Source: Catonia carolina
Taxonomy: Eukaryota > Arthropoda > Insecta > Hemiptera > Achilidae
DNA length: 64,000 nucleotides
Reading direction: 5' to 3'
Assembly (NCBI GenBank): GCA_035578175.1
Contig: JAQMRL010000003.1
Location: 97,633,969 to 97,697,968, forward strand
Numbering within the stretch: position 1 is the first letter of the stretch; every line of letters starts with the position of its first letter. Under the pieces are notes generated by a model. That model was not told the DNA's origin, made no database searches, and was given only the letters and a program-made list of their open reading frames with translations. Below, in pieces: positions 9,305 through 57,460 of the stretch. The position numbers and the translations under genes are program-made.

Positions 9305-12300
9305 TTATGAATCTAATGTACAAGGCATTAATTTTTTTTTTTTGTCATCAGTCTCTCGACTGGTTTGATGCAGTTCTCCAACCTTTCTATCTTGCGCAAG
9401 TCGTTTCATATCTACATACCTGTAACACCCTACATCTTTTGTAATTTGCTTTATATATTCTAATCTTTGCCTCCCTCTACAATTTACTCCCTCAATGTTA
9501 CCCTCCATTATTGATAGCCCAATACCTGGATGTCTTAGGATATGCCCCACTAGCCTATCCCTTCTTTTGGTAAGATGCTTCCATATACTTCTTTTTTCAT
9601 CCACTCGCCTAAGAACCTCTAAATTACTTATTTTGTCCACCCACCTAATCTTTAACATTTTTCTATAACACCACATTTCAAAAGCTTCTATCCTCTTCCT
9701 TTCTACAGCCCCTATCACCCACGTTTCACTTCCGTATAATGCTACACTCCAAGCATAATGTTTTAAGAAATTTTTCCTAATCTGTAAATCAATGTTTGTA
9801 GTCAGTAAGCTGTTTTTCATTTCAAAGGCTTTTCTAGCTTGAGCAATTCTACTCTTGATATCACTTGTGCTTCTACCATCCTTTGTTATTTTACTCCCTA
9901 GATAGCAGAATTCCCTAACTTCCTGTATGCTTTCGTTGCCTACTTTTAAATTTCCCATCTCTTCTAAACCACTCTTGCTGCTGCACAACACTTTCGTTTT
10001 GTTCTTATTAATTTTCATGAAGTAATCCTTTCTCAAGATCTCATCCATTCCATTTAAGGCATCCTCTAGTTCTTTCTTTGCCTCGGCTAATACTACTATA
10101 TCATCGGCGAATCTCAGCATTTTTATTGTTTCTCCTTGAATTTTTATTCCTGCGTCAAATTTCTCCTTCACTTCATTTATAGCCTCTTCTATATACAAGT
10201 TAAAAAGTAGTGGTGACAAAGAACAACCTTGTCGTACACCTTTTCTTACAGCAGCCTCTTTTTCGTACCCCTCGATTCTCAAAACAGCCGTTTGATTCTT
10301 ATACAGACTGTAGATAACTTTCCTTTCTTTGTATTTAATTCCTAGCCTTTTCAAAGTTTTAAACATTTTACTCCAGTCCAAATTGTCAAATGCTTTCTCT
10401 AAATCTACAAATGCCATAAAAGTAGTTTTATTTTTCTTTATCCTTTTCTCAATAATCAGTCTCAGAGCCAATATTGCATCTCGAGTTCCCATTCTCCTTC
10501 TAAATCCAAATTGGTCATCGTCCAATACTTCTTCTACTCGGTGTTCTATTCTCCTGTATATAATTCTTGTCAGTATCTTAGATGCATGGCATGTTAGGCT
10601 GATGGTTCTGTAATGTTCACACTTCTCCGCTCCTGACTTTTTTGGTATTGGAATCATAATGTTTTTTTTAAAGTCCGATGGTACCTCTCCACTCTCATAC
10701 ATTCTGTACACAAGTTTGTATAATTTGTTTTGAGCAACTTCGCCACATCGTAATAATAATTCCGATGGTATGTTATCTATTCCTGGTGTCTTATTCATAT
10801 TCATATCCTTAAGTGCCCGATCGAATTCTTCTCGTAGTATAGGGTCCCCTCTTTGATCTTCTTCAACATCAGTTTCTTGTTCTATCGCATCATGTTCTAA
10901 TTCGTTTCCCCTGTAGAGTTGGTTTACGTATTCCTTCCATCTTTCAGCTCTCTCTTGGCCATTCAACAATGGTTTGCCACCTGCGCTTTGTAAATTAACA
11001 GCTTTCATCTTTCGTTCTCCAAAGTTTTCCTTTATTTTTCTGTAAGCTGCGTCCACTTTACCAACTGCCATTTTACTTTCAATGTCCGTACAGTTCGCTC
11101 TGATCCACTCTTCCTTCGCTTTCTTACACCTTTTGTTTATGGTATTTCTCAAGTAGCAATATTGCCTTTTACCTCTCTCGTCCTTTGCGTTTTTATATTT
11201 TCTTCGCTCATCCATCAGTTCTAAAATATCATTAGTAATCCACGGTTTCCTACCTCTTCTTTTTGTATGTCCTAACCATTCTTCCGCTGCTTTCACTACC
11301 ACCTCCTTGAAGTTTATCCACTCCTCCTCTACACTTCTTGTGTCATTACCTCTTTCTTCTATCCCTTTTTGAATACTCTCCTGGAAACCTACCTGGTTGT
11401 CTTGTTCTCTTAGTTTGTCTACATCCCACCTAGCATTTCCCTGTCCCTTCTTCAGTTTTTTAAGTTTAAGCCCGCTAACCATTACTACTAAGTTATGATC
11501 ACTTCCTATGTCTGCACCTGGATAGGCTTTACAGTTCATAATCTGGTTTCTGAATCTTTGTCTAACCATTATGTAATCTATTTGGTATCTTCCCTTGTCA
11601 CCTGGCATCACCCAAGTGTATAACCTCCTTTTGTGATTCTTAAAAAGAGTATTGCCTATCACTAAATTATATTTGGAGCAGAAATCTACCAGCCGACTCC
11701 CTCTGTCATTTCTTTTCCCTAGACCATATTCTCCGACTATCTTTCCTTCTTTTCCTTCTCCAACTACTGCATTCCAGTCTCCCATAACTATCAAATTTTC
11801 ATCACCCTTGACATATTTTATTACTTCATCTAATTCCTCATATACTTGTTCTATTTCTTCCTCTCTGTGTGAAGACGTAGGCATGTAGACCTGCACTATC
11901 GTGGTGGGCTTTGGTTTCGTATCTACTCTAACCATGATAATCCTATCACTACACTGCTTATAGTAAGTCACTCTTTGTCCAATTTTTTTATTCATTACTA
12001 GACCCACTCCGCCCTGCCCTCCGATGGCTTTAGTGTTAATAACCCTATAATCCCCTGACCAAAAGTCTTGATCATCATCCCAGCGTACCTCACCAATGCC
12101 TACAATATCTAACTTCAACCTATCCATTTCCCTTTTTAAATTCTCTAACCTACCAGTTTGTTTTAAACTCCTAACATTCCATGTTCCAACTCGCAGAATT
12201 TCAGAAACTTTTATTTTTTTGATGAAGTCCCCTCTGATAGTCCTCGCCCGGAGATCCGAATGGAGGACTAGTTTATCTCCGGAATGTTTTACCAGAGAGG

Positions 12301-12310
12301 ACGCCATCAT
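9305..12310 (-). CDS. LINE endonuclease-reverse transcriptase ORF
   Basis: A 1001-codon frame. An exonuclease-endonuclease-phosphatase domain occupies about residues 40-275, with GTWNVRSL, GEVRWDDD, MGDWNAVVG and the terminal SDHNLV. The reverse transcriptase is about 520-800, with TPGIDNIPSELL, QFGFRRRMGTRDA, RKGVRQGCSLSPLLFNLY and the catalytic FADD near residue 733. A C-terminal region with AFEMWCYRKMLKI and GHILRHPG follows. The protein nicks target DNA and copies its own RNA there. The element contributes no stop codon: the frame runs through the A-tail as lysines and ends in flanking host DNA at 9305-9307. There are no frameshifts or internal stops. Confidence 0.9.
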   Translation of the reverse strand: MMASSLVKHSGDKLVLHSDLRARTIRGDFIKKIKVSEILRVGTWNVRSLKQTGRLENLKREMDRLKLDIVGIGEVRWDDDQDFWSGDYRVINTKAIGGQGGVGLVMNKKIGQRVTYYKQCSDRIIMVRVDTKPKPTTIVQVYMPTSSHREEEIEQVYEELDEVIKYVKGDENLIVMGDWNAVVGEGKEGKIVGEYGLGKRNDRGSRLVDFCSKYNLVIGNTLFKNHKRRLYTWVMPGDKGRYQIDYIMVRQRFRNQIMNCKAYPGADIGSDHNLVVMVSGLKLKKLKKGQGNARWDVDKLREQDNQVGFQESIQKGIEERGNDTRSVEEEWINFKEVVVKAAEEWLGHTKRRGRKPWITNDILELMDERRKYKNAKDERGKRQYCYLRNTINKRCKKAKEEWIRANCTDIESKMAVGKVDAAYRKIKENFGERKMKAVNLQSAGGKPLLNGQERAERWKEYVNQLYRGNELEHDAIEQETDVEEDQRGDPILREEFDRALKDMNMNKTPGIDNIPSELLLRCGEVAQNKLYKLVYRMYESGEVPSDFKKNIMIPIPKKSGAEKCEHYRTISLTCHASKILTRIIYRRIEHRVEEVLDDDQFGFRRRMGTRDAILALRLIIEKRIKKNKTTFMAFVDLEKAFDNLDWSKMFKTLKRLGIKYKERKVIYSLYKNQTAVLRIEGYEKEAAVRKGVRQGCSLSPLLFNLYIEEAINEVKEKFDAGIKIQGETIKMLRFADDIVVLAEAKKELEDALNGMDEILRKDYFMKINKNKTKVLCSSKSGLEEMGNLKVGNESIQEVREFCYLGSKITKDGRSTSDIKSRIAQARKAFEMKNSLLTTNIDLQIRKNFLKHYAWSVALYGSETWVIGAVERKRIEAFEMWCYRKMLKIRWVDKISNLEVLRRVDEKRSIWKHLTKRRDRLVGHILRHPGIGLSIMEGNIEGVNCRGRQRLEYIKQITKDVGCYRYVDMKRLAQDRKVGELHQTSRETDDKKKKLMPCTLDS

Positions 12311-12704
12311 AATTTTTCATATTTTGAAGTTCTCGAAGTTCTCGAAGCTCTTGAAGATCTGCATATACTAAGTAAGCCTAACCAGAATCATACATGAAGG
12401 AGTTTCCTTACAATAATTCTAGTCAGACAGAAAAAGCTGTAGTTTACTGTTGCTTTCAGCTTTTTGGTTGGCAGACTGAGTGCCCCAAGCCACCGTCTGC
12501 CAGGGTGGAATGGGCAGCCCTTCCAGTTCCGTTCACCATGGGCCGGTTATCGTGCTGATGAGCGGTCACATGGTTACTAACAGGCCACACAACGTGAATG
12601 TATGGATAGGACACTAGCCTTCTATCCCGGCTGGTTCCCTTAAGCCTTTTGTGAAAGGAATTAAGGGGTCTCCTTCCAGTTGATGACAGAAGCCCTTTAT
12701 AGCC
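9333..12704 (-). mobile_element. Full-length RTE-like LINE with 12-bp target duplication
   Basis: The element runs 5' to 3' on the minus strand. CAAGGCATTAAT occurs at 9321-9332 and 12705-12716, flanking it exactly, and the 3' end is a short A-tail (T run at 9333-9343). It carries a roughly 390-bp 5' leader (12311-12704) and one long intact ORF, the compact layout of RTE-type elements. The 3' end has a small hairpin (9349-9362) immediately before the tail, shared with a SINE family elsewhere in the window. The clean duplication and intact ORF point to a fairly recent insertion. Confidence 0.9.
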
Positions 12705-12716
12705 CAAGGCATTAAT

Positions 12717-22400: not shown

Positions 22401-25400
22401 AACCCGAAAGCATAAGACATGTATCAAGTGTGTAACTCAAAATGTAACCACCACAAACTCTTAAGTAATAAAATTCAGTCCATGACCCGTCACACTAAAT
22501 AAATAAGTAAGGAGTACTCTAATTATTTAAAGAAATTGAATTGTTTAAAATTCAATTGCAATTTAACATAACTTTACTGAAAATAATGAAATATGAAAAC
22601 CCTAAAAATACAATAACTTTTTGAAATAACCGTAAAGCTAGTATTACTCACGATAATTAGCTTGCATCGACAGAACTCACTAGTCTATCACTACAAAAAT
22701 GTCAAAGTGCAGTAATTCAGTTTACTGCTAATGACCAAAATGGATACTAAATATAGCTTAGGCTTAGTGTTATGGCTTATTTAGAATGAATGTTTATTAT
22801 TTAGGATAATTATTAAAAATCAATAAATAATACATTGAGATGTTTATAAAACGACAGTTATAAACATAATAAATCAATGTAAGAGTAAAACAACAATATC
22901 ATGTCATGGTTAGAGCTATCGCTATGATGTATTTAGAAAAGCACATAATAGTAGCACTCCCCCCCCCCCGCATAGTCCAGTCTTACTCTCGCTGATGATC
23001 GTCAACTTATATTGCGTTACCAGTACCGGGTCATTGAGAAAGTTGCATCCATTTTAAAAAATTACAGTTTAAAAACTACTGGAGATAAAGTCATAATTTT
23101 TTTGTTGTAAACAGAAACTATTAAAGGATTTTTACAAACCTTAATAATTTTGTATGTGAGCACCATCAGTTGCTTTGCACACATCTAAATGATAGTCAAC
23201 CTCTGTCCAGGTGCGCTGTGTCAAATCAACCGTGGCTGAAGCAACAGCAGTAGCAATTCGTCATCATAAATTATTCATTTTATGAATCTTCTCATTAACA
23301 CAACCTCAGAAGAAAAAATCAAGCGGGGTTAAATCTGGGCTACGCGGAGGCCAAAGCACAGGACCGGCCCTACTGTTTTATTGGTCAGGGAACCCTTATT
23401 TGAGAGTGTGGTAATTTTTTAAAATCGATGCAACAATTCTCAATGACCCGGAACAAAAACCATTAGGATTTATTGCTACATTTTCCATTAATTTGCCATT
23501 TCATTTGACAGTTTTATGCTAAATATAAACAGTTAAGTAAGATGAATAATAAGTTAATAAGTTATAAGAGTCATATGGAGGGAGAAATAGGAACAATCAG
23601 TCATATTAAATTTTAATAAGGAGGTTAAGCAAAGGTGGATAAAAAGAGTTGGGCACACTCATGACTAAGCATTATTTTATAAGTTTTTTGGCCATTAGGT
23701 GCTGATACACACAAATGTTGAGAGGTAAAATAGAAACTTTATTGCTCTATATTTAAAGCTACAGAACAGTGTTGCTTAAAGACTGTAGTTCGATTAAGTT
23801 AGGTGAAAGTTGTAACTGTTCACTGTGTGAGCAGCAAGTACTGAAAGACAATTTAATTTTTTAACTGCTTTATATAGGGCTGTATCAATTTAGATTGTTG
23901 CCTACTCTTTTCAATTGATGGTAGTTTTGTTGTTATCTAAGGAAAGGAGAAAGATAATTTCTTAATGAATTTTGTTGTCATAAAGTAGCACAGTCTTGGC
24001 CATAACAGGCAGGTGGAGTGTTAAATTATATGCCTTGAACTGCTAGTTCTAGAACTAAAAAAAAACTAGTTCTGTTTCTTATCACATGGTCAGCCAATTA
24101 AATGACTGAAGCATTTAAGAACAGAAGAGGTAAACGTGTGAAAGACACTAGTCACAGTTATCTCCTCTGAGAGTAATGAATTTTATCGTGTAGCCAGACC
24201 CTGTGGCGAATGAAGTGAAGGTGTCATTGCAAGGTAGATACTTTTCGGAGGGCTTGGCATGCTGATAAGCATCCTTTTCCACTCAGTGATGAAGGCAATG
24301 GTTAACCACCTCACTCCTAGTTTTACTAAGTAAAGCCTCTAGAGGTTCAAACCAGCCTTTTGACTGATGACCTAACAACAATAAAGAATAGATTGCTACA
24401 AAAGATTTGGCTATGGGTTTTAACCAGAGGGAGAAAACAAAGACAACTCAGAAAGGAGTGGGTGGATGGTGTTGTGAGAGCTGAGGAGAAGGGTCTTCAT
24501 ATAAAGATGTGTTTCATATGAATGAGTGGTGTTTTGGTTTATGGGAAATGGACGAGTGCTGTAATTATTTTGTTTTTTTTTAGGTTTTACGTCTGACTGT
24601 TTTGCAATCGCTGCTAATGCATGGCTGTAGAAAGCCATTATAACAATAACAATAAAAACGACGAGAAAATAATGTTGTTTCAATAAGAATTATTTTTTTC
24701 AAAAAGATAACCTGAAACTTTCTTTGAAATTTAAATTCCTCCCTCCATTTTCTTGGTCGGCCCATTGGCGTAGTGGTTATAGCAACTGGCTTCTATACCA
24801 GCATCCCAGCTTCAATTCTCAGTCAGGTCTGGCATTTTTGCATGACTCATTTTCATATATCATCATTCTCCACCGTCTGTGTTAGCAGAAATTGCTAAAC
24901 AGTCAGACGTAAGCAAAAAAAAAATCCATTTTCTTGCATTATGTCATTCCATAAAATAATTAACATAATCATTGCATTTTTCTTCATCATCTCTTATGTA
25001 GATAAATATATGATAGCAATGATATTTATGATATGATAGCAACTTAAATTTAATATTCATTATGCTGATGGTTCCAAATAGAATGAAATATTACACATAA
25101 CTCGATCACAGAAGCTTTTCACAAGAAAACCAATTCTTTCCATTTAGCACCAGTTTTATAATTACACTTCTTACAACATTCTTACAACACTTCTTTTATA
25201 ACATTGTAAATAAACTAGATAAAATTGTGAACCATACATATCAACTGAACAAATTAGTATGAAAAATACAATTACATTTTGGCTACAAAAAATAAAACGT
25301 TAAGAAACAGTTACTGCTCTTTAAAAATAAAATCAAGCGTTTCAGAATAACATGCATCAAAAGATCATGTGACCTAATTATGAAGTATAAATAAATTAAT

Positions 25401-27783: not shown

Positions 27784-28955
27784 CACGCAAACGAACCAAT
27801 AGCTGAAGATATGACTTTTGGGTTCAGGGGCCAAAAAACTTGTTTTATCGGTGAAAATTCGATTTTGAAAAACCAAAATGATAACAATAGCTAATTTCCT
27901 TCCTGTATATTCATAAAAGTCAAAAGAAAGTATATTGTACAAAAGGGCATAATTAACACATAGTTTTTGCTTGAAATATTACTGAAAATTCCTTAGGAAT
28001 ACCTTGTCAGTGACAATATCTTTTACGTCTATACATTCAAGGAAACAGCCCATGAAATAGGTTTCAACTGATTCTTCAACCCAGTCAATTCCTCAACCGA
28101 GCTTTACAATAACGGGTCGGCTAAAACTAAAAAATAGACTAGGGTTTTGATTTTCACGGTGCTAACAATTTATGATCGTTTTTAAGGAAAGTTTCAACAC
28201 CTGACGATGTTAATAAGTTTGCGGACTAATACATATCGATTAAAACTCTGTCGTGTGGTAAGTCTTCGCATTTTGGGGATTTTAATTCGAAAAATCAAAG
28301 CAACTGCTGATATTGGTCCCGTTTAAGATGGATTTGTTAATACTTCAACGCTTATAAATGATTTTCTGTAATAATTTTTGTATTTGACAGTACAGTAGCG
28401 TGGCACTCAGGCTCACATCTGTAAAAAAATATCATTACACGTCGTAATGACTCCAATATTTTTTTACAATTATAGCCTTTAAAAACAAATCCTAATATAG
28501 TATCAGATGAGAAATAACTTTATCTTATTATTATTAATTTAGGTTGTACGAAGCTATTTCAATAAAAAAACATGTGAGAATTGTTTGGTACGTAATACAA
28601 TTTTATTAATACATATTCCACAAACAAAATTCTGGTTACTGACATTGTGAAATTTAAAAAAAAATATATTGTGAAAAATATATACATGTATTTTTAATCT
28701 GAACGATGTCAGATTTATATAAGCACTGTAAATGGAAGCAAGAAGATTCATTAGACTACGTGTTTAGCTACACAATTGTTTAAAGTTACCTAAATATTTT
28801 ATTACATTACTTTTTTATGAAAAACTCGATCCACGACAATTGGCCGTTTTTTTTCTAACTATCGAGAAAGTTAAACATTTTTACGTTTTCTTATATTTTA
28901 AAACAACTCGGTACAACGGAATTTGTGGTTTTCTTTAGAACTATTAAAAAATTAA

Positions 28956-29033
28956 ATGAGAATGAATGGAAATTTTTTTGTTACGTTTAATAATGTTGTA
29001 GTAACAATAATACTGACAGCTTTAATCTCATGG
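28956..29033 (+). CDS. Gene A exon 1: hydrophobic leader
   Basis: Starts ATG AGA ATG, 26 codons, donor TCATGG|GTAAGT. In copy B the same 26 codons show two silent and three conservative changes, which is what marks it as coding. Confidence 0.6.
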
Positions 29034-31179
29034 GTAAGTCGCTATAAACCTACATCTTTCAATGTGTTTTGCAAAAAGAAGAGCTGAGTGGATGAAGATG
29101 CTATGAAACATTACTTTTTCTTGCCTTACATGAATATTCAGGGAAAGAATTTGTTTTTATGTCGATTTTCGAAATCGAGTTTTTGAACCCGGCAGAAATA
29201 TTTCGCTAGCTGTAACTCGCTAACGAAGCGTTTTCGGACCTTTGTTGATATAACATTTTTTTCATATATTTACTAGCAGAATGCGCTGGGAGGGAGACTT
29301 TTTGTATCACTTTGTATAATATGTTAAATGTATGTACAATTTACATTGTAGGACCCAAGGAATAAAGACTGTAGGGTGATGAATTCGAGTAAAATAACAG
29401 GTATCAGTGATAAGACGAAACCAACTCAACTTAATTTGGTTGAAACAAGTCAAGAGGTGCTCGTGTTGCAAGACGCAATGGACGACAGAAAAAAAATTAT
29501 ATATAAGGTAAAGAAACCACTCAGATACGAGGACAATAGCCTTAATCTTAATTTGTAAAAGATTTTATTAATTCTTTTATGAAAAACTTTTTTTATTTTG
29601 AAATACCGTTCGTTCATTCTCAGAGAGTATTGTGTATTAAAGTTTAGTTGATGATAATACTATAATAAGGTATAATACGAAGAAACCAGTTTGAAGAAAA
29701 GTGTTATTATAGACATTTTAATTGAACGACATAAATTTTAATGAAGGGATAATAGTGTATACGATAATTGAATTTTTTTAAAAAAGGTACAATTCACAAA
29801 ATGATGAGAGCTTTAGAATTTCAATCGCATTTTTGTCAAAAATTTATTTTTGTTAAATTCCGTTTGTATCAAATAAGCTCTTCAATTTGTTGACCGTATG
29901 AGTTAGTGATCTTTAGAAGAATATTCGAGTGTTCATGTCCCCATGTTTTCTTCTTAGTTTATTGTCAACGGACTACTGTTTCTGTGTTATAACAAAATCG
30001 ACTGCCACTAAACATAATATTAACCTACTAATTTTTAGTTCCAACCTCCAAATTAACCACCGAATTCTCTTATAATTACTTTTGGTCGAATTAACAGTAG
30101 TATAACAATTTAGGACCATCTATTGATAGCATTTTTAAACATGCTGTAGAAGAAAAACGGTTGCCCTGGTATGGACATGTTGGAAGTACGGAGGCCAGAT
30201 GGATTAATAAAGTAATGGAAGAAAGCAAGGATGGAATGCAACCCACAAATATACGATTAGGTGGGCGAGGCTGTGCAGGAAAGAGGCTAGGGCGAGCGTG
30301 GCTCGGGTGATTAGGGGTAAATTTAGGATCTGATAAAGGGAAGGAAGACAGCATTTGTCTTCTTCATCATTGCCTCCTCAATCTTGAGGTTGGTGGACAT
30401 ACAATTATGCTACCTCCATCTTGGCAGTCTCTTCGCTTCCATTCCTTACTCTTATCCGTAAATTTCAATATCGGTCTTCCTCTCGTTGCCTACACCTTCA
30501 GAATGGTGATTAACAAGGTTTAATGTCATAGCAGATGTCCAATCGTACTGAATCTTCTACCTTTGATTATTGTCAAATTCTTTCTTCACCCACTCGTGTC
30601 ACTACAATCTCGTTAGTCACTCTATCTATCCATTGAATCTTAAGAATTTTTAGTCAACATCACATTTCAAAGGCTTCCAGTTTCTTCCTATCCACATTTT
30701 GTAGAGTGTACATGTCTGAGGCGCAAGTGCGAAATTACACCTCGGAGAAAAATTACTCCAATTTTGCAAATAAATGTTCTAACAGAAGTCTTTCTTTTGT
30801 CCGTCTCTTCTTTCTTTTAGATGGCTTTTAATATATAAAAAAATCAACATTTTTTTATTTTATTTTACAGGATGAAACAGAAGGAAAGCCAATTCCTGGG
30901 AAAATAATGGATCACGTTATCAAACATCGATTTTGGTACCTTTTGTTACCTTCTATTCCAGTTGCAGCTATATGTGGTGGAATAAGTTGTATTTCATTTT
31001 GTTGTGCATTATTTACGAATATTTTTAAGAAGTACTGTGCATGCTGCGACTTTCTGATGAAATCATTTTCTTTTGGCTTTGCCTGGACGATTTGGGCTTT
31101 TCTCCATGTCTTTGACTGGGTTTATGTTCCCAAAAATTATGCTGACTTCTTACAAGAACGGTGCAGTACAACAGATTAA
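28956..31179 (+). CDS. Unrecognised 180-residue membrane protein, gene A, three exons
   Basis: Exons 28956-29033, 29352-29507 and 30871-31179 join with both introns in phase 0 and GT/AG ends. Exon 1 gives an N-terminal hydrophobic leader (MRMNGNFFVTF, then VVVTIILTALISW), either a signal peptide or an anchor. Exon 2 is polar and acidic (VETSQEVLVLQDAMDDRKK). Exon 3 has two hydrophobic spans, about residues 99-127 (FWYLLLPSIPVAAICGG, cysteine-rich) and 142-163 (SFGFAWTIWAFLHVF). An AATAAA at 31232-31237 follows the stop. I recognise no family. Support for coding comes from the paralogue at 45593-48657, which keeps splice sites, frame and many silent changes. It could be a multi-pass membrane protein or a secreted one with hydrophobic hairpins. 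Confidence 0.62.
29170..29335 (+). repeat. Single-arm remnant of the ACAGGGTGATTC foldback family
   Basis: Contains GTAACTCGCTAACGAAGCGT and ACATTTTTTTCATATATTTAC, which match the right arm of 33820-34833. It lies in gene A intron 1 and is also present in copy B (about 45830-45945), so it predates the duplication. Confidence 0.65.
29352..29507 (+). CDS. Gene A exon 2: polar segment
   Basis: Acceptor TTTACATTGTAG, donor ATAAG|GTAAAG; 52 codons starting DPRNKDC, phase 0-0, so it can be skipped without a frameshift. An in-frame ATG at 29379 is an alternative start for a 145-residue form. Confidence 0.6.
30120..30740. repeat. LINE scraps in gene A intron 2
   Basis: The plus strand at 30127-30360 reads RLPWYGHVGSTEARWINKVM. 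The minus strand at about 30640-30730 reads NVDRKKLEAFEM. Both are C-terminal LINE motifs, here in opposite orientations. The same arrangement recurs in copy B at about 47565-48230. Confidence 0.5.
30871..31179 (+). CDS. Gene A exon 3: two hydrophobic spans
   Basis: Acceptor TTTATTTTACAG; starts DETEGKPIPG, ends QERCSTTD then TAA at 31177-31179. The best conserved exon between the paralogues. Confidence 0.65.
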   Translation, partial: DETEGKPIPGKIMDHVIKHRFWYLLLPSIPVAAICGGISCISFCCALFTNIFKKYCACCDFLMKSFSFGFAWTIWAFLHVFDWVYVPKNYADFLQERCSTTD

Positions 31180-33819
31180 TCGGAATGGAATAAAGAAAGT
31201 GATCAAGGTAGCCGACCACAGTGACTGAGCAAATAAAAATCTGGTAATAAATATATATTCATTTAATAAATAATAGACAGATTTAATTAGCTACAGCACA
31301 AGCAAGCTCTTGCCTGATGAATTTCCACGTAAAATGACTTTAGTAATTTATATTATATGTGACATAATAGTTCGTAAAGCATGCCAATGCTTTAAGAACT
31401 TTTATTCATCAAGATTAGAGACTTAAAATTGTTAACCAATAACTTGTGTTTTTTGAAACTAATTCAATAAATAGTGTAACAATAATCTGTCACTTAATAA
31501 TATTAAATTAATCTAACAATTTACCAACTGTGATCTTTCAATAAGATATCTACTAATAGAATGCAATGTTTTACGAATTCTGAGATCTAAATAGAAAATG
31601 CCTAATAATGATGTGCACAAGTGTCTAAATGAACTGGCTACCGTGCCTCAAACCATCTTGGTTTTTTTATTAAAATACTTTTACAAACTATAATAACCTC
31701 AGTACATTTTTTGAGTTTTAACCTTTCCGTTAAATTTCGAGAAACTATAATGCTCTAAACGTCACTGTGTTCATGACCTTTACAAAGTGTTTTATGTGTT
31801 TTATTTCGCAAATTGTTGTTCTATAATTTTGTAGCAATAATTTCGTAAAACTTGTTACTTTGATTTTTGTAGTCACTAATACCCTTGGTTGTTAATGTGA
31901 CTTTAAAACATTAAATAAATGTAAAAATATTCTTTAACATTTGGTTTTCGTTTTAATAAAGTTTGTTTTAATTTTTCGATCCAATTAGAGTTTCCTTTTG
32001 TGTTTTTTACCTGAATTTGTTTTACTGACTTGATGGTTTTTATTAAATTCTGGAAAAAGGTAAGGATCTTTGATTTTTTCGTCGTTCATATGTTAAAGGT
32101 TGTAGTATAACAATCATGGAAAAAATTAGATAATGCCTAATTTTATTTTGAAGAAATTTGTAACGATGTTGCCTTACATGAGAAGTATGAACTCAAACAA
32201 AACTGCCCAATTCACTGAAAAAATTTAAGGAATAGATAAAATGTTGACATCATTCAAATTAAATACATGAGAAGTAACAGTTTTGCCAAGTGAGCATTCC
32301 TGCTCTAGCACATCAGGTTTTACTTCGAATAATAATTAATTTATCGGGCTCATAAAATAAAAATGTGGGATACTTGCTTAATTCAGATCTTGCAGCTACC
32401 CTACTCAGTCGGTAGATGCTATAAATAGTAAAATAGCTGACACATAAAAAATAAACACGCCTCTGAGACTACCTATTTAAATTAACATTTACCTAAATTC
32501 CAGAAATACCATAAAGAAGCATCAATTAAATTGAATGGTTGTCATTATGTTCCTTCCTATCAAAAAACAAAAGCTGAAAATACAAAAAGTCTCTCTGAAA
32601 AATATTACGCTCCTAAAAGACTATTAATCGAAAACATCAGTATTTGTTATTAGAAAAAACTAAACTATTGTTTTAAATATTCTATAATTATTCTCCAAAA
32701 AGTTCACTCTAGTAGCACCGGGACCGTTAAAGAAGTACTGGAGAAATCACTAAAATCTAAAATCTATGACAATGTGGAAATTACAACATGGTAAGTGTAC
32801 TTCTTAAAACTAAACAAGTTAGAGAAAGAAGTCAAAGATCGAATAAAAAAAGCAATTAGACAAAGTACTATGTGGCCTGTGCAAATAAATTCACGCAATT
32901 AGTCCTCAGCGACATGTCTCCTGTCCCCAGAAAAAATATATTCCTAAAAAATTGTTCAGTCAATAAATTTAAACTTTAAATATTCCATAGTTGCAACAAA
33001 AATGAAAAGCCAACATCGTGATTGTAGTTGGTCATAAAGTGGGGTGATCGCGTAAAATGACAAAACTACACAGGCCTTACATAAAATAAAATCAATTTTT
33101 TTTTAAATTGGTTTTAATTAGGGGTGATCGCTTGGTAATGGTGGAGTAAATACACACATACTGTACACACAATTCAATTATTTAAAATTTGTTTTTTTCA
33201 AAAATTTATTAATCCATTGTTACAACACTCGTTTGGCAAATAATTCAGCACAGTATAGTATCACAAGATTGTAAAAACGACCGGATAGAACTCAGAAATA
33301 AGCATGTGTTAACCGTTTTGCGACTGATAGATTTTAGTATAATAACTCTAGCATCACTAATCCTAAGATCCCGCCGATGGACTTGGTTTCTTTTATCCGT
33401 CTTTTTTCCAAAAAATTTAAAACTTTTATGAGACGCTAAGAAAACTTTGAGGGATGTTTTAAAAACACAAACATGACACTCCGTTTTCTTTTACGCAAGT
33501 TGCAGCAAATTTACGAAGAATCGGTTGTAATTAATGCTAAGTTACGTATTTGTCAAAATTTGGCAACAAAAAATATTTTTTAGTCTGGTTTTACAGAAAA
33601 TTGTCTAGCAAAAAATTTTATATATCAAACGACCTAATTTATTGTATAAAAAAACGAAGGAAGTCGCAACCATAAGTGAGAGTCAAGTGAATGTGGAAGT
33701 TTGTGGTAAAAGGAAGCAAAAACTCCTCTCTTTGAACTGATGTCATTGATTCATTCCTACAGTTATTTATATGATGTATGATATTATATGAAAGCTCGGA
33801 ATTTTGTAAATACGTGCAT
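31180..33819 (+). other. 3' flank of gene A
   Basis: AT-rich, with the poly(A) signal at 31232-31237 and no further coding signal. Parts recur in copy B and in copy C (32460-33225 matches 56331-59345 apart from insertions in C). No gene recognised. Confidence 0.6.
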
Positions 33820-34833
33820 ACAGGGTGATTCATGAAGTTCTCCCCCCACTTCTACAGCACATTGTACTAGTAAAAATAATGAAAAAATGTTATATAAACA
33901 TAGGTCCGAAAACGCTTCGTTAGCGAGTTACAGCTAGCGAAAGTTTCGCCTGGATTTCAGTTCACCAGGTGAAATGAGGTCTTCCTGGAATTGTGGTAAG
34001 GTAGATTAAGGGGCAAATTCAATCATTTCTTATGGTTTTTGATCTGATAAATTGAATAAAACAGGTCCCAGATCTGTAAGTTAAATAGTTTTTAAGAAAA
34101 CCAGTGTCAAATGCAAAAAATGGAGTGAAAAACTTATTTTTTCATCTTTGGGCAAGGATAACTGTGTTATTTCACCAAGAAACAGTTAAAATTTTTCAAT
34201 AAAACATGTAGAAAATTTTATTCTGAACAAACCGGTGTAAATTAAGTACACAGAAAGCGAATAGATGTTTGATTAAATGAGTTTTTATTCATAAGAGTAC
34301 AAAGTAAAATTAACCGGAAAAACTAAAATGAAAAAATGTGTTTTTTTCACTCCATTTTTTTGCATTTGACACTGGTTTTCTCAAAAACTATTCGCTTTCT
34401 GTGTACTTTATTTACACCGGTTTGTTCAGAATAAAATTTTCTACATTTTTTATTGAAAATTTTTAACTGTTTCTTGGTGAAATAACAAAGTTATTCTTGC
34501 CCAAAGATGAAAAAATGTGATTTTCACTCCATTTTTTGCATTTGACACTGGTTTTCTCAAAAACTATTTAACTTACAGTTCTGGGACCTGTTTTATTCAA
34601 TTTATCAGATCAAAAACCATAAGAAATGATTGAATTCGCCCCTTAATCTACCTTACCACAATTCCAGGAAGACCTCATTTCACCTGGTGAACTGAAATCC
34701 AGGCGAAACTTTCGCTAGCTGTAACTCGCTAACGAAGCGTTTTCGGACCTATGTTTATATAACATTTTTTCATTATTTTTACTAGTACAATGTGCTGTAG
34801 AAGTGGGGGGAGAACTTCATGAATCACCCTGTA
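33820..34833. mobile_element. 1-kb foldback element with 13-bp target duplication
   Basis: ACAGGGTGATTCATGAAG at the left is matched by CTTCATGAATCACCCTGT at the right. The arms (33820 to about 34268 and about 34390-34833) are near-perfect reverse complements around a loop that repeats part of the arm. TAAATACGTGCAT flanks both sides (33807-33819 and 34834-34846). Copy B has the uninterrupted site, so the insertion came after or outside that copy. No ORF with a domain. Confidence 0.85.
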
Positions 34834-35431
34834 TAAATACGTGCATTATAAATAGAAAAGATAAAGTAGAACACCTTAGTTTCATTGTGAAGAAGTACTA
34901 TCTGAAAACTGGCTATTCTACGAATCTCAGAGAGTTTGTTCCCTTTTTCAGGTTATATTCATTTCAATTTGTTTTCAAGCAAAATTATTGAACAATATAC
35001 CTACCGCTACTATTTATGCTTTCAAACGCGGTTATTACTCTATTTTTAGATGAGATTCGGCGTTTACACGGTTTTCTTTATTTAAAAGAAAATCGGAATT
35101 CTGTGGTACTACAATATTTACAAATCAATAGGAAATTTCCCACTATTCGGATTGTGTTTATAAATAGCTTAATTTTTTCCTAACACATTCAGCTACTATT
35201 TAACTATAGCGTTTACTGGTGTGCGCTTGCATTGACCTTCACTATTACACAAACTTTTGAGTACTGACACACTGGTCATCATCTAACAACAATATAATGG
35301 CTTTTTTATGTTTTGGGTATCCCTCATTCTAACCTAGGCTAATATTCCAAAAAAAGTAATGTTTGTTTGTTGGTAAAGGTAATCTCAGAAACCACTGAAC
35401 CGATTTAAAAAATTTTTCGTTATTGAAAAGT
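34834..35431 (+). other. Remainder of copy A
   Basis: Matches copy B 50610-51218 closely. No coding signal recognised. Confidence 0.6.
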
Positions 35432-35607
35432 GTTGTTGTTTTTGGTCATCAGCCGAAAGGCTGGTTTGAACCGTTAGAGGTTTTACTAAGTAAAACTAGG
35501 AGTGAGGCGGTTTACAATTGCCTTCCTCATTGAGTGGATAAGTTAGCTCATCAGCATGCCGGGCCTTCTGAAAAGCACATATCTTCCACTCTGCAAATGA
35601 CACATTT
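35432..35607 (-). mobile_element. SINE, 3' part (3'-hairpin family)
   Basis: Minus-strand orientation. It has the hairpin at 35450-35463 and the shared blocks AGAGGTTTTACTAAGTAAAA and AAGCACATATCTTCCACTCT; its SINE-5' half is lost after about 35607. Confidence 0.7.
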
Positions 35608-36282: not shown

Positions 36283-37605
36283 CGAGGGTAAGTCAAATAT
36301 TTTCCGGAATTTAGTTATATTTTTGTTATGTTAGCAGTACTGTCGTTTTGCGTTGATGACGCATGCTTTGTTTATTTGTGGTTATATGTATGCAAGTTTC
36401 AAGCTGCTAGGTTAGTTACGTTATCCGTGTCGTGCTGTCAATCATGGCTGCTCTCCACTTCTATTTGCAGCAAAGAAGTGCAACGTTCAGTGATCCGTTT
36501 TTTTTTTGTGGTCCGAAGGTGTATCAGGAGCCGAAATTCAAAGAAGACTTTCGATACAGTATGGGAACAGTATTTTGTCACAACGGAGTGTCTACGAATG
36601 GATTGAAAATTTCAAAAATGGTCGCTGGCAAGATTAAGGAGCCTGACGACCGAATACCGCCGTAAATGAAGAAAACATTGAGCGTTCACGTGAAATGATT
36701 CCCTTAGACAGACGAGTAACTATTAACGAAGTGGCACATCGTCTGCAAATTAGCCATGGTTCTGCCTACGAAATCATTTGGTTCACACTTGGGTTTCATA
36801 AAGTTTGTGCAAGATGGGTCTCAAAACAACTGACACTGTTGCATAAACAAACGCGTTTGGCCATCTGCAAAATCATTTGAATCGCTATGGTAACAACCGG
36901 GACAACTTCTTAGACAGGATCATTACTGTTGACGAAATATTGATCCATCATTACGAGCTGGAAAGTAAACGGCAGAGTATGGAATGGAAACAACCAAATT
37001 CGCTGTGCAAGAAAAAATTCAAGACCCAACCTTCCGCAGGAAAACTGATGCTTACCGTTTTTTGGGACTCACAAGGTCCAGTACTTGAACATTATCAGGA
37101 AAGGGGCAGAACAATAAATAGTATACGTTACAGTGAGATGCTTACTGCCAAGCTAAAGCCTGCAATTCGAAGCAAACGCCAAGGACTGCTGTCAAAAGGT
37201 GTTGTGTTGTTGCACGACAACAACCGTCCGCATACTGCTGCCCACACTGCTGAAACGGTCCAGAAACTCAATTTTTAAGTACTGGCTCATCATCCATGTA
37301 GTCCCGATCTTGCTTCTTCTGATTATCACTTCTTCACTCCTGATTATCATTTTGGTCTATTCAAAGAGGCATTAAGGGGCCGTCGATTTACCTTGGACGA
37401 AGCATTGAAGGAAGCGGTGCATTCCTGGCTCGCATCTCAACCAAAAACCTTCTTTTATGAGGGCATCAGGAAACTTGAACAACGATGGACCAAGTGCGTT
37501 CAAAAGCAAAGGGACTATGTCGAAAAATGTTGTACTTGTAAGTTTCCTTTTTTATTACAATAAAATTTTATAACTACATTGCGGATAATAATTAACTTAC
37601 CCTCG
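36283..37605 (+). mobile_element. Dead mariner element
   Basis: Inverted ends CGAGGGTAAGT at 36283 and ACTTACCCTCG-type at 37605 are flanked by TA on both sides; 1323 bp, the normal mariner size. It carries a complete but broken transposase gene. Confidence 0.88.
36440..37555 (+). pseudogene. mariner transposase pseudogene
   Basis: Reads in several frames. The N-terminal helix-turn-helix shows SVYEWIENFKNGRWQD followed by a stop. Then come REMIPLDRRVTINEVAHRLQ, the first catalytic region ITVDEILIHHYE, WDSQGPVLEHY, and the second acid in LLHDNNRPHTAAH. The third is in another frame (PDLASSDYHFF), with a small tandem duplication that repeats DYHF. The D,D34D layout is recognisable, but frameshifts and stops leave no functional protein. 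Confidence 0.85.
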
Positions 37606-44800: not shown

Positions 44801-45208
44801 AGGGTTGGACGCTGAAGGTTAACACCATGAACAGGTTGGAAGCATTTGAAATGTGGATCTACCGAAGAATCCTGAAGGTTCCATGGACGGCAAAAATAAC
44901 CAATGAGGAGATTCTGGAGAGGATAGGAAGGAAACGGGAACTGATGAGCACCATAAAAAGAAGGAAGACCGCTTATCTGGGACATGTGATGCGCAATGAG
45001 AGGTACCATCTGCTGCAACTGATAATTGAGGGGAAGATAGAGGGACGGAGAGGAGTAGGCAGAAGGAGGATGTCGTGGCTGCAGAATATCAAGCAATGGA
45101 CAGGGATGGAGGCCGCAGGAGACATAATACACACGTGTGGTGACAGGGAAAAGTGGTCAGCGGTGATCGCAAACATCCATTAATGGATAGCAGACAAAGA
45201 AGAAGAAG
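41892..45208 (+). mobile_element. Full-length RTE-like LINE with 11-bp target duplication
   Basis: ATAACATTATA at 41881-41891 and 45209-45219 flanks 3317 bp exactly. There is a GC-richer 5' leader of about 270 bp, one intact ORF and a (AGA)n microsatellite tail (AGAAGAAGAAG), which is typical of RTE elements. It sits about 30 bp from the left edge of copy B. Confidence 0.92.
42163..45183 (+). CDS. LINE endonuclease-reverse transcriptase ORF
   Basis: 1006 residues with its own stop. The endonuclease domain (about 50-290) has GTWNVRSL, VAETWW, MGDFNSKIG and PSDHVLL. The reverse transcriptase (about 530-800) has GPDQVPVEMLK, QFGFKRGLGTREA, RGVRQGCVLSPLLFNLYSE and the catalytic YADDTVLVAD near residue 751. 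The C-terminal domain has AFEMWIYRRILKVPW and GHVMRNERYHLLQLIIEGK. No internal stop or frameshift, so it may be competent. It is closely similar in layout to the truncated copy at 51233-53303 and more distant from the ORF at 9305-12310. Confidence 0.92.
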   Translation: MTITMTIMMDAFNSKFSGGINSSPIGSPGGTVLNGNNKEENKINLRKKVNIGTWNVRSLYEAGKLANLIQEMDRLKIDVLGVAETWWPDVGKCVTQGKVMFYSGNQESNHRKGVEIIIAEKLSSSVVGFLPHSDRMALLKLKAHPVNINIIQVYAPTSEASEDEIEEFYEQLKQLMNKNIKKHEINLIMGDFNSKIGKGMPNELIGPYGLGRRNDRGEQLYQFCQEEQMRVTNTWFKLPPRRLYTWKAPADCPNNTIRNQIDYILINKRFGTSITRTCTHPGADVPSDHVLLKTELKIKLTNMKNQKQKPRIDYDRLKDENIKDGVAKKLNDALTMLVRSQSADEETLDGAWRNMEEQIMDVAQKEIGYRQKIKRKNWMTNEILAMFEERRKYKCQGNQNGYRMLQNAIRKEIRVAKNKWLREQCEELECLQERHDDYNLHRKLKEVAGIYRKMTFSNIQDEHGQMAHDIGEKKAIWERYIANLFADERPQLENNLEGGNDLSGPAITIEEIIRALKTSKNGKAVGPDQVPVEMLKLLDNEGVKMLQRFFNQIYDRGKFPVRWLASLFIQLPKKSNATKCEEHRLISIMSHTLKIFLKVIQYRISTKCESDMGSSQFGFKRGLGTREALVAIQVLVQKCYDQGKNVILCFIDYEKAFDKVQHSKLVQILRGLDIDQRDVRCIEDLYWNQTAAVRIDNETTEAQSIVRGVRQGCVLSPLLFNLYSESIFQEALEGQQLGIKVNGTWINNVRYADDTVLVADNMNDLQHLLNTVAVHSKGMGIDINVRKTKFLIITRKPDEFQNSKLKLNNEDIERVKKFNYLGTWLCEDWSSDVEIKCRIEKARSAFIRFRSILTNTEFDLNLKIRFTKCYVWSVLLYGIEGWTLKVNTMNRLEAFEMWIYRRILKVPWTAKITNEEILERIGRKRELMSTIKRRKTAYLGHVMRNERYHLLQLIIEGKIEGRRGVGRRRMSWLQNIKQWTGMEAAGDIIHTCGDREKWSAVIANIH

Positions 45209-46036
45209 ATAACATTATAATAACATATCCCCCACTACATTTTTTATTCATACCTTACAATATTCAACAAACAAAATTCTGGTTACTGATATTGTGAAAT
45301 TTAAAAATATATATATTGTGAAAAATACATATTTTTAATCTGAACGATGTCAGATTTATATAAGCACTATAAATTGTTACAAAAAGATTCATTAGACTAC
45401 GTGTTTAGCTACAATATTCGTTAAAGTTACCTAAATATTTTATTACATTAATTTTTTATGAGAAACTCGTTCCACGACAAACGGCCGAATTTTTAACTAT
45501 CAAAGAAGTTAAACAATTTTACGGTTTCTTATATTTTAAAATAACTCGGTACAACGGAATTTCTGATTTTCTTTCGAACTACTAAAAATTAAATGAGAAT
45601 GAATGGAAATTATTTTGTTACGTTTAATAATGTTTTAATAACAATAATATTGACAGCGTTAATCTCATGGGTAAGTCGCTATAAACCTACATCTTTCAAT
45701 GTGTTTTGCAAATAGATCAGCTGAGTGGATGAAGATGCCATGAAACATTACGTTCTCGTGCCTTACATGAATATTCAGGGAAGGAATTTGTTTTTATATC
45801 GATTTGCGGAATCGAGTTTTCGAATCCGGCAGAAATACTTCGCAAGCTGTAACTCGTTAACAAAGCGTTTTCGGACCTTTGTTTATATAACATTTTTTCG
45901 TATATTTACTATATGACGCTGGTAGGGCGACTTTTTGTATTACTTTGTTTAATATGTTAAATGTATGTACAATTTAAATTGTAGGACCCAAGGAATAAAG
46001 GCTGTAGGGTGATGAATTCAAGTAAAATAACAGGTA

Positions 46037-46870: not shown

Positions 46871-46962
46871 TCGGTTATAAGTCCAAACCAACTCAAGTTA
46901 ATTTGGTTGAAACAAGTCAAGAGGTGCTCGTGTTGCAAGACACAATGGACGGCAGAAAATAA

Positions 46963-51222: not shown

Positions 51223-51232
51223 ATTGTTTAGA

Positions 51233-53303
51233 GAGAAAACTGAAAGAATCTAATACGTGCCAACAGGTCAAAGACCGGGTAAACCGGGAAATTCAGGAGG
51301 TGGAAAGGCAGGGGCAGCTGACCACAGCAGATAAATGGAGGAAGGTAGAGGAGATTTTGAGAAACATCACAGAGCAGGAACTCCAAGAGGACATACCTTT
51401 TAAGGATAAACAATGGATGACACAAGAGATAAGAGAATTGATGTCAGAAAGAAGGGCATACAAGAATAAAAACGAACAACAGTACAGAAAAGTTAATAAG
51501 GTAATCAAGGAGAAAATTAAAGAAGCCAAAGAACTATGGCTATCAGAGAAGTGTTCAGAAATAGAAAAGCTAGATAAACTACATGATAGTTTCAACATGC
51601 ACCGTAAAATCAAAGAGACAGCTGGCATATACAGGAAAAAGGGCATTGGAAATATAATGGATAACAACAATAACATACTGATAGACTGTAAAGAGAAAAT
51701 AGACAGATGGGAAGAATACATAGAAGGACTATTCAAAGACAGTGAAAGAATAAAGAGGATAGAACCAAGAGGAAGAAAGGGACCTCCAATCACCAAAGAT
51801 GAAGTTGAGAAAGCGCTAAAACATGTAAGAAATGAGAAGGCCATGGGACCAGATGGAATACCTATAGAAATCTTGAAAGTATTAACAGAGACTCATATGG
51901 CCACAATATTAGAGATGTTTAATGAAATTTATTATACTGGAGAGTTTCCAAAAGAATGGCTAATATCAGTATTCATTCCCATACCCAAGAAACCAAATGC
52001 ACTGAAATGTGAAGAATATAGGACAATCAGCTTGATGAACATATTCTAAAAGTCTTCATGCGAGTGATACATGAACGCATCTATAAAAAGCTGGATGATA
52101 GAATAGCAGAAAACCAATTAGGATTCAGAAAAGGATTTGGTACCAGGGAAGCATTATTCACTGTACAAACACTGATAGAAAGATGTCGAGATGTTAATTG
52201 TGATGTTTTCATATGCCTAGTTGACTTTGAAAAGGCTTTTGACAAAGTACAACACCAAAAGATGGCAAAAATATTAGAAACCTCCGAACTTGATGACGAA
52301 GACGTGAGAATCATTGTCAGCCTATACCGATACCAGAGAGCCATAATAAGAGTGGATCAGCAGAAATCTAGGGAGATACCTATAAATCGGGGAGTAAGAC
52401 AGGGATGCGTACTTTCCCCTTTGCTTTTTAATGTCTATTCAGAAGAATTGTTTGGAGAGGCATTGGAGGAAGTAAATGAAGGCATATTTATTAATGGAAG
52501 ACTCCTGAATAACCTTAGATATGCTGATGATACAATTCTCTTTGCAGACAGCAGAGAAGGGCTACAGATCTTGGTTGATCGTATTGTCCAATACTGCGAG
52601 GGGTATGGAATGGCACTGAATACAAAGAAAACAAAGATCATGGTGGTCAGCAAGAACAAGATTGACGAGGTTAGAGTTTATGTCAAGGGAACACCTCTGG
52701 GCAGAGTACATAGCTATCAGTACCTGGGTTGTAAGCTAAATGAAGAATGGGATCGTAGTAGGTAAATAAAACGACGCATTGAGATAGCCAGAAATACTTT
52801 CAATAAGATGAAGGCAATACTATGTAACGGAAAATTGAGCATAGATATTAGAACAAGAGTACTGAGATGCTATGTATTTTCTGTCCTATTGTATGGAGTT
52901 GAAGCCTGGACAATCACAGAGACGATGGAGAAAAGACTCAGTAGCTTTGAAACGTGGTGTTACCGAAGAATGTGGAGAATATCCTGGACAGAGCACATAA
53001 CAAATATGGAAGTGCTAAGAAGAATGAAGAAGGATAAGGAACTGCTCAACACCATAAAGAAAAGGAAAATGGGATATTTCGGTCACATTCTAAGGAACGA
53101 AAAGTATGAATTGATGCGGCTGGTCATACAAGGGAAAGTGGAGGGCAAAAGGGGATCGGGAAGACGACGCACATCCTGGTTGAAGAATTTACGACAATGG
53201 TGTGGAAAAACATCAATAGAGCTTTTCAGGACAGCAGCAGATAGAGTAAAGTGGGCCATGATGATCGCCAATGTCCTTAGGGATAGGGCACCTTAAGAAG
53301 AAG
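51233..53303 (+). mobile_element. 5'-truncated RTE-like LINE copy with 10-bp target duplication
   Basis: ATTGTTTAGA occurs at 51223-51232 and 53304-53313. The tail is AAGAAGAAG as in 41892-45208. The endonuclease half is missing, as in incomplete target-primed copies. It is inserted in the 3' tail of the copy B SINE. Confidence 0.9.
51234..53296 (+). pseudogene. Truncated LINE reverse transcriptase pseudogene
   Basis: Starts in the linker before the RT (RKLKESNTCQQ). RT motifs are GPDGIPIEILK, QLGFRKGFGTREA, NRGVRQGCVLSPLLFNVYSE and YADDTILFADS. The C-terminal domain has SFETWCYRRMWRISW and GHILRNEKYELM. There is one frameshift near 52046 and one in-frame TAA at 52763-52765. Closely related to the intact copy at 42163-45183. 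Confidence 0.9.
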
Positions 53304-53313
53304 ATTGTTTAGA

Positions 53314-54113
53314 CCATCAGCTGAAAGGCTGGTTTCAACCTGTAGAGGTTTTACCAAGTAAAACGAGGAGTGATGTGGTTTACAATTGCCTTCCTCACTG
53401 AGTGGAAAAGTATGCTTATCAGTATGTGGGTTTTCTGAAAAGCACATATCTTCCACTCTCTAAATGATACCTTCACTTCATTCACCACAGGGTCTGGCTG
53501 TATAATGAAATTCTATACTTTCAGAGGAGATAACTCAGATTAGTGTCTTTTTCAACTTTATCTCTTTTGTTCTGAAATGATTCAGTCATATAATTGTACA
53601 TGGCTGACCGTTGTTGTTGTTTAGGTCATCAGCCGAAAGGCTGGTTTGAACCTGTAGAGGTTTTACTAAGTAAAACGAGGAGTGAGGTGGTTTACCATTG
53701 CCTTCCTTACTGAATGGAAAAGTACACTTATCAGCATGCCGGGCCCTCTGAAAAGCACATAATTTTCCACTCTGCAAATGACACCTTCACTTCATTCACC
53801 ACAGGGTCTGGCTGTATAATGAAATTCATTACTTTCAGAGGAGATAACTCTGATTAGTGTCTTTTACACCTCTACCTCTTCTGTTCTTAAATGATTCAGT
53901 CATTTAATTGGCTGACCATGTGACAAGAAACAGAACGATTTATTTTAGCCCTGTAACGAATAGATTGAGTGTAATTAATTTGACACTCCACCTGTCTGTT
54001 ATGGGCAGACAGACATGGCTGACCATGTGATAAGAAACAAAACTATTTATTTTAGCCCTGCAACTAACAGATTGAATACAAATAATTTGACACTCCACGT
54101 GTTTGTTATGGGC
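53314..54113 (-). mobile_element. SINE (3'-hairpin family), copy B, interrupted by a second SINE
   Basis: Left part 53314-53609 carries the hairpin and central blocks; right part 54025-54113 carries the SINE-5' portion ending near GTGTTTGTTATGGGCAT. The tail side is split off by the LINE (remainder near 51219-51232). Orthologous to the SINE in copy A. Confidence 0.8.
53610..54012 (-). mobile_element. SINE (3'-hairpin family) nested in another SINE
   Basis: A 403-bp full-length copy with TSD ACATGGCTGACC (53598-53609 and 54013-54024). It begins, in window orientation, with GTTGTTGTTGTTTAGG and has the hairpin at 53630-53643. Confidence 0.88.
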
Positions 54114-57065: not shown

Positions 57066-57460
57066 GTTGTTGTTTAGGTCAACAGCCGAAAGGCTGGTTT
57101 GAACCTCTAGAGGTTTTACTAAGTAAAAACGAGGAGTAAGGTGGTTTACCATGCTTTCCTCACTGAGTTGAAAGAGTATGCTTATCAGCATGCCAGGCCC
57201 TCCGAAAAGCACTCACTTTCCACCCTGCAAATGATACCTTCACTTGATTCACCACAGGGTCTGGCTGCATAGTGAAATTCATTACTCTCAGAGGAGATAA
57301 CTCTGACTAGTGTCTTTTACACCTCTACCTCTTCTGTTCTTAAATAGTTCAGTCATATAAGTGGCTGACTATGTGATAAGAAACAGAACTATTTTTTTTT
57401 AGCCCTGGACCAAACAGATAGAGTGCAATTAAAATAACACTCCACCTGCCCGTTTTGGGC
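57066..57460 (-). mobile_element. SINE, full-length copy (3'-hairpin family) with 13-bp target duplication
   Basis: ATGATGGCCTTAT at 57053-57065 and 57461-57473 flanks 395 bp. The hairpin is at 57083-57096, next to the GTTGTTGTTT tail (minus-strand AAACAACAAC). Confidence 0.92.

What the first reader, a model, noticed from the sequence alone, without database searches (positions are those of the whole stretch)
9344..9368. A LINE and a SINE family share a 3'-terminal hairpin with a compensated stem change
Read 5' to 3' on its sense strand, the LINE 9333-12704 ends CAAACCAGTC-GAGA-GACTGATGAC before its A-tail. SINE copies (57066-57460, 53610-54012, 35432-35607) end CAAACCAGCC-TTTC-GGCTGATGAC before an AAACAACAAC tail. 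The outer bases agree, the loop differs, and the one changed stem pair is T-A in one and C-G in the other. The copy at 24353-24366 has one unpaired stem position. A kept structure with a compensatory change is what is expected if the LINE reverse transcriptase recognises this hairpin and also mobilises the SINE. SINE/LINE 3'-end sharing is known in general; this pair is read from the sequence. The RTE-like copies at 41892 and 51233 lack it.
Basis: partly seen in the sequence, partly recalled or inferred. Interest (0 to 1): 0.75.

Follow-up and report, generated by a model that had tools for sequence, protein, structure and literature searches.

The report
Hairpin closing a jumping gene's coding end
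The RNA hairpin that ends this insect jumping gene appears to be written in the last codons of its own protein; short elements in the same window end in a close variant of it, probably taken from a sister jumping gene rather than from this one.

Summary
The LINE (9332-12704) ends CAGTC-GAGA-GACTG-ATGAC; SINE-like copies end CAGCC-TTTC-GGCTG-ATGAC. The hairpin and its one compensated pair are real.

The pairing is doubtful. All four loop bases and the tails differ (A12 against (AAC)n). In zebrafish L2 LINEs the loop matters most (PMC4176376). The SINE end reads SNQPFG** and the LINE end ASNQSRD**, so the SINE tail looks like the coding end of a sister LINE not seen here. The five aligned SINE copies show no compensatory change.

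The stronger finding: the hairpin overlaps the ORF end. Among 26 relatives showing both stem residues, 20 are S-x-D, 5 P-x-G, 1 S-x-N, none mixed: an amino-acid echo of one base pair, but only one switch on the tree. The RTE-like LINEs said to lack the hairpin have their own, 5-bp stem and 4-nt loop, at the stop codon; so do an old fragment at 30.4 kb and a stray contig, L001.

Genome-wide copies could not be collected (genome search did not complete). Known kind; the coding overlap is the twist.

The parts
9332..12704 (-). Full-length LINE, single ORF (AP endonuclease + reverse transcriptase), A12 tail at 9332-9343
   Evidence: 11-bp TSD at 9321-9331 and 12705-12715, read in the sequence (flanks printed)
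9345..12307 (-). 987-aa open frame; it runs through the hairpin in a frame other than the one (ASNQSRD**) that matches the C-termini of relatives
9349..9362 (-). LINE 3'-terminal hairpin CAGTC-GAGA-GACTG, followed by ATGAC and the A tail
53610..54012 (-). SINE-like copy B, full length, nested in copy A; TSDs 53598-53609 and 54013-54024
   Evidence: copy A aligns across the site once its flanks are joined
53630..53643 (-). Hairpin of copy B, CAGCC-TTTC-GGCTG
57066..57460 (-). SINE-like copy; TSDs 57053-57065 and 57461-57473; hairpin 57083-57096
23995..24390 (+). SINE-like copy (ends approximate); hairpin 24353-24366 with one broken pair (C-A)
35432..35607 (-). 3' part of a SINE-like copy; hairpin 35450-35463
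53300..54113 (-). SINE-like copy A (older, ends approximate), split by copy B; hairpin 53318-53331 with innermost pair broken
45175..45188 (+). 3' hairpin ATCCA-TTAA-TGGAT of the RTE-like LINE 41892-45.2k; stop codon TAA lies in the loop
53272..53285 (+). 3' hairpin TGTCC-TTAG-GGATA (one G-U) of the decayed RTE-like LINE 51.2-53.3k
30376..30389 (-). 3' hairpin CCTCA-AGAT-TGAGG of an old LINE fragment, in frame with ...PPTSRLRRQ**

Best explanation
The hairpin is the 3' recognition signal of a stringent-type, RTE-like LINE, and it is written into the last codons and stop of the LINE's own ORF. Proposed mechanism: the LINE protein binds the 5-bp stem and 4-nt loop at the very end of its mRNA and starts target-primed reverse transcription in the simple tail just after it. 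Because the signal is also coding, the stem constrains the last amino acids while the loop codon is nearly free. The SINE-like element carries the same kind of end (CAGCC-TTTC-GGCTG), which still reads like a LINE C-terminus (SNQPFG**). It was most likely captured from, and moved by, a sister LINE of the same group with that stem and loop, not by the 9.3-12.7 kb copy. Shown: hairpins, TSDs, reading frames, amino-acid coupling. Inferred: protein binding, choice of partner, selection on the structure.
For: Five LINE ends seen as DNA (LINE 9k, RTE 42k, RTE 53k, the 30.4k fragment, L001) have a 5-bp stem (one G-U in RTE 53k) and 4-nt loop 5-10 nt before the tail, with five different stems, at the ORF end. 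A Watson-Crick hairpin of that geometry within 12 nt of an arbitrary point: 612 of 18258 window trials (3.35%), 2255 (12.4%) with G-U. 0 of 3000 sets of four random window points share a Watson-Crick stem of 5 or 6 bp with one common loop size of 3-8. 165 distinct proteins were listed by two searches (120 best of 603; 120 best of 407); 39 of them end in N, Q/R/K, S/P/L plus at most a few residues; 26 show both stem residues: S-D 20, P-G 5, S-N 1, S-G 0, P-D 0. The loop residue takes ten kinds in these 26. Another 33 of the 165 end TC-x-x-[ATV]-[ED]; x1 is L15, R10, P3, Q1, W1, K1, C1, F1, so 29 of 33 share the first codon letter C. Partner: loop and tail differ between LINE and SINE, and the loop mattered most in ZfL2.
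Against: The S/P and D/G coupling is one switch on the tree; a lone change would fall on that branch with chance about 0.013 by branch length, so it is suggestive, not proof. The LINE groups are homologous (LINE 9k and RTE 42k proteins 36% identical), so the hairpins are not independent draws, and the geometry was chosen after seeing the first cases. Folding z-scores of whole 71-nt ends are weak for the LINEs (-0.71, -1.55, +0.63; L001 -0.19 on 51 nt; 30k -1.14). The second copy of the old fragment (48k) has a broken stem and folds otherwise. SINE copies show 0 two-sided changes. All five P-G proteins have an extra C after G that the SINE frame lacks. Only one copy of this LINE family was seen at its 3' end.
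Confidence: 0.66

Rival explanations
1. One reading: the 9.3-12.7 kb LINE family itself recognises both hairpins and moves the SINE, reading stem and flanks and ignoring the loop.
For: Flanks TCAAACCAG and CTGATGAC are identical and the stem is kept by a compensated pair. [quoted passage not shown]).
Against: All four loop bases and the tail repeat differ; in ZfL2 the loop mattered most. A class of relatives with the SINE's stem letters exists.
Confidence: 0.18
2. The end is conserved for protein reasons in the LINE (C-terminal NQS-x-D motif) and is only a fossil in the SINE; the hairpin is incidental.
For: The motif is read in one frame in both; the coupling of residues is one event; whole-end folding energies of the LINEs are unremarkable.
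Against: Five different stems give the same geometry at the same place; in the TC group the residues agree by codon letter (L/R/P/Q) rather than chemistry; in the 42k LINE the right arm lies beyond the stop codon.
Confidence: 0.12
3. Convergence or chance: the SINE end and the LINE end are not homologous.
For: Beyond about 25 nt there is no detectable similarity (22 of the last 40 identical; three SINE copies against five LINE targets scored within 100 letter shuffles each).
Against: 19 of 25 terminal bases agree, anchored at the tail, with the same reading frame and double stop; the pattern has 0 hits in shuffled windows.
Confidence: 0.04

Closest known systems
Stringent-type LINE/SINE pairs with a shared 3' stem-loop (UnaL2, ZfL2-1/ZfL2-2; PMC4176376: abstract, sections 13 and 19 read)
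   Same: Stem-loop close to the 3' end, simple tail, SINE sharing the end.
   Different: L2 clade there; here the hairpin overlaps the last codons and stop of an RTE-like ORF, and the loop differs between LINE and SINE.
RTE-clade LINEs and their SINEs (Bov-B/Bov-tA and others in PMC3747384; HaRTE1/HaSE1 in PMC3272025; lepidopteran RTEs in PMC2887409; Sbg8/Sbg9 of Blattella with a Locusta RTE in PMC9191728; passages read)
   Same: One ORF with AP endonuclease and RT, very short 3' region with simple repeats after the stop, SINEs sharing the 3' end.
   Different: The passages read describe no hairpin inside the coding end; 'hairpin' and 'stem' have no hit in PMC2887409 or PMC3272025. PMC5135761 says a 3' stem-loop is known for RTE in mammals (passage), so the hairpin as such is not new.
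Monocot L1 LINEs with ZmSINE2/3 (PMC3747384 section 4.3, passage read)
   Same: LINE and SINE share a 3' hairpin whose stem carries compensatory mutations.
   Different: There the stem letters vary while loop and flank letters are conserved; here flank and most of the stem are conserved while the loop differs. L1 clade.

Membership tests
RTE-like LINE | One ORF with AP endonuclease then reverse transcriptase, no RNase H | tested here: met
   Pfam: RVT_1, Exo_endo_phos and Exo_endo_phos_2 only
RTE-like LINE | Falls in the RTE clade on an RT tree with named reference elements | not tested
   No labelled reference set used. Most relatives are unnamed; named ones include Craniofacial development protein 2 of Cacopsylla. 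36% identity to the window's 42k LINE
Stringent-type LINE | 3'-terminal stem-loop before a simple tail | tested here: met
Stringent-type LINE | Loss of retrotransposition when the stem-loop is changed | not testable with these tools
   needs an assay
SINE | Short, several copies, shared 5' end, TSDs, LINE-like 3' end and tail | tested here: met
   clear TSDs in two copies (57k, 53k B)
SINE | RNA polymerase III head (tRNA, 5S or 7SL) with A and B boxes | tested here: inconclusive
   No tRNA, no Rfam match at gathering, only weak unrelated ones with lax settings in two copies. The one B-box-like site is at the 3' hairpin, and such sites are no commoner than chance window-wide (12 found, 12.7 expected). 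A boxes were not scanned. It could be a short element made from a LINE 5' end, a kind listed in PMC3747384
LINE/SINE partner pair | 3' ends alike including loop and tail | tested here: not met
   Loop 0 of 4; tails A12 and (AAC)n

The most novel reading that the evidence does not exclude
Across RTE-like LINEs the retrotransposition hairpin is built from the last codons and stop of the ORF, so the C-terminal amino acids are dictated by base pairing: residues coevolve as RNA partners (S..D with P..G; possibly K..L in an aphid). SINEs then take over a piece of coding sequence, stop codons included. Termination at this site could couple translation to capture of the template in cis.
Probability: 0.35. 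Interest if true: 0.65.

Novelty: new variant of a known kind. Interest (0 to 1): 0.45.

Why it matters
If the recognition hairpin is part of the coding sequence, one short stretch serves as protein end, stop signal and reverse-transcription signal at once. That would explain why RTE-like LINEs have almost no 3' untranslated region, would let the partner LINEs of orphan SINEs be predicted from C-terminal residues, and gives a cheap test of specificity by silent codon changes.

Tried and rejected
Rejected: the SINE body as a copy of the LINE 5' region (local alignments within shuffles). Rejected: four other CTGATGAC hits as family members; the contexts of three were read, the fourth (44649, inside the 42k LINE, other strand) was not. 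No DNA of relatives came from viral contigs, by pattern or by protein. The one genome-contig scan gave 14 loci; I read stretches of four (L001, L002, L003, L007) and only L001 showed a usable related 3' end; the other ten were not read. A test of the inner pair in the TC group by compatible codons was judged uninformative and dropped without a call. In one search I placed the RTE 42k tail wrongly, so that row found no hairpin; it was redone, with letter shuffles instead of dinucleotide shuffles (one search likewise for 30k). Tail boundaries are mine, by eye. The outer-pair swap in P0034 (NKSTDL) is a codon guess, no DNA was seen. The RTE insertion signature described in PMC13295347 (passages) was not tested here. 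That a mammalian Bov-B end can be drawn with a similar hairpin is recalled, untested and not used.

Full report
Observation. The window looks like insect DNA (my reading of its mobile elements and of the insect names among the named protein relatives). The pattern CAAACCAGYCNNNNGRCTGATGAC, with up to 3 mismatches allowed, is found five times (four exact, one with one mismatch) and in none of 100 shuffles. The LINE copy (9332-12704) has an exact 11-bp duplication on both sides and an open frame of 987 residues with AP endonuclease and reverse transcriptase domains. SINE-like copies 57066-57460 and 53610-54012 have duplications of 13 and 12 bp; the latter sits inside an older copy, and joining that copy's flanks lets it align along the 57k copy.

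Where the hairpin lies. Proteins related to the LINE end in ASNQS-x-D or similar. In the window copy that reading, ASNQSRD followed by two stops, is in a neighbouring frame of the long ORF, so this copy seems to have slipped frame near its end. The hairpin CAGTC-GAGA-GACTG is therefore the coding end of the element: the left arm covers the codon for Q and two letters of S, the right arm D and the start of the stop. The SINE end read the same way gives SNQPFG and two stops.

Amino-acid echo of pairing. Two protein searches listed 165 distinct proteins (the 120 best of 603 and the 120 best of 407). Of these, 39 end with N, then Q, R or K, then S, P or L, and at most a few residues more. Twenty-six show both stem residues: 20 S-D, 5 P-G, 1 S-N, none mixed. 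Twelve of the 39 stop right after S or P and one after L, so they cannot be scored. TCN with GAC pairs T-A; CCN with GGC pairs C-G: the same pair that differs between LINE and SINE. On a tree built without these residues both traits change once, on the same branch, which is 1.3% of the tree length. The residue in the loop takes ten kinds among the 26.

Other LINEs. The RTE-like LINE at 41892-45.2k ends ATCCA-TTAA-TGGAT with its stop codon in the loop; the decayed one at 51.2-53.3k ends TGTCC-TTAG-GGATA, one pair being G-U. An old fragment at 30.4-30.7k, found by tblastn with 12 of the 285 proteins, reads ...PPTSRLRRQ and two stops over CCTCA-AGAT-TGAGG; its second copy at 48k has a broken stem. 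L001, a LINE contig filed in a bacterial MAG, ends CTGCC-GTAA-GGCAG. Thirty-three of the 165 proteins share L001's kind of end; at the residue whose first codon base closes the stem, 29 of 33 are L, R, P or Q, alike in codon letter C. In the third search (120 best of 521), 104 of 120 proteins have the end motif I asked for, and 99 of 103 residues at the matching column can be coded by CNN; but R, H and Q are also chemically alike. Counting the column itself, 17 of 267 and 13 of 574 equally variable columns are as uniform in first codon letter; of these only 12 per group were printed, and the others printed are sets of like residues such as K/R/N, D/E/G or F/W/Y.

Chance. A perfect 5-bp stem with 4-nt loop ending within 12 nt of a point occurs in 612 of 18258 window trials (3.35%), 2255 (12.4%) with G-U. 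Shuffled ends give 0.65% (LINE), 1.1% (SINE), 0.15% (L001) and, with G-U, 5.8% (RTE 53k); letter shuffles give 1.0% (RTE 42k) and 0.9% (30k). Multiplying the background rates for the four window LINE ends gives 4.6e-6; this overstates the case, because the geometry was chosen after looking and the LINEs are homologous. Whole-end folding energies are not remarkable for the LINEs, nor for SINE copies 57k and 24k (z -1.60, -0.59), but are for 53k and 35k (z -3.00, -3.49).

Within the SINE. Among five aligned copies none of 18 predicted pairs has a two-sided change; the two innermost hairpin pairs each have one broken copy. That is what decay of dead copies looks like and neither supports nor refutes selection. 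No tRNA, 5S or 7SL head was found, but A boxes were not scanned, so the name SINE is provisional.

Partner. Loop and tail differ between this LINE and the SINE. In ZfL2-1 and ZfL2-2 the loop, more than the stem sequence, decides which RNA is used (PMC4176376 section 13), though stem changes lowered UnaL2 activity (section 19). I therefore place the SINE with an unseen sister LINE of P-G type. Against this, the five P-G proteins found all have an extra C that the SINE frame lacks.

Literature. Shared 3' ends are general (58 pairs; CR1 and RTE predominant), and compensatory stem changes are reported for monocot L1 and SINEs (PMC3747384, passages). RTE simple repeats start right after the stop (PMC2887409, passages). 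Blattella SINEs share sequence with a Locusta RTE (PMC9191728, passages). [quoted passage not shown] I found no statement that the hairpin overlaps the coding end in the listings of searches and the passages named; the library holds open-licence papers only, so this is weak evidence of absence.

Limits.

Noticed in passing
28610-35441 and 45256-51229: A long repeat present twice, in pieces of 85-91% identity, each copy with an old LINE fragment (30.4-30.7k, 47.8-48.2k); SINE 35k and the RTE-like LINE at 51.2k sit at its right edge.
   Followed up: partly
35422-35430 and 54116-54124: ATTGAAAAG lies left of SINE 35k and right of SINE A; perhaps one ancestral SINE insertion copied with the long repeat.
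   Followed up: partly
12676-12688 (-): The LINE 5' end holds TGTCATCAACTGG, close to the reverse complement of its own 3' end.
   Followed up: no
33818-34269 / 34383-34834: Inverted repeat with 452-nt arms, 97% complementary, 113 nt apart.
   Followed up: no
39200-39300 (-): Looks like a fragment of another reverse transcriptase (reads FADDTS by eye).
   Followed up: no
61387-63081 (+): ORF of 564 aa with a secretin-type 7TM domain, reminiscent of methuselah-like receptors (recalled).
   Followed up: no
36847-37278 (+) and 40181-40669 (-): ORFs that resemble transposase pieces, the first mariner-like, by eye and recall.
   Followed up: no
L001:2960-3010: A contig filed in an Acidobacteria MAG is a LINE, so probably contamination from an animal.
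   Followed up: partly
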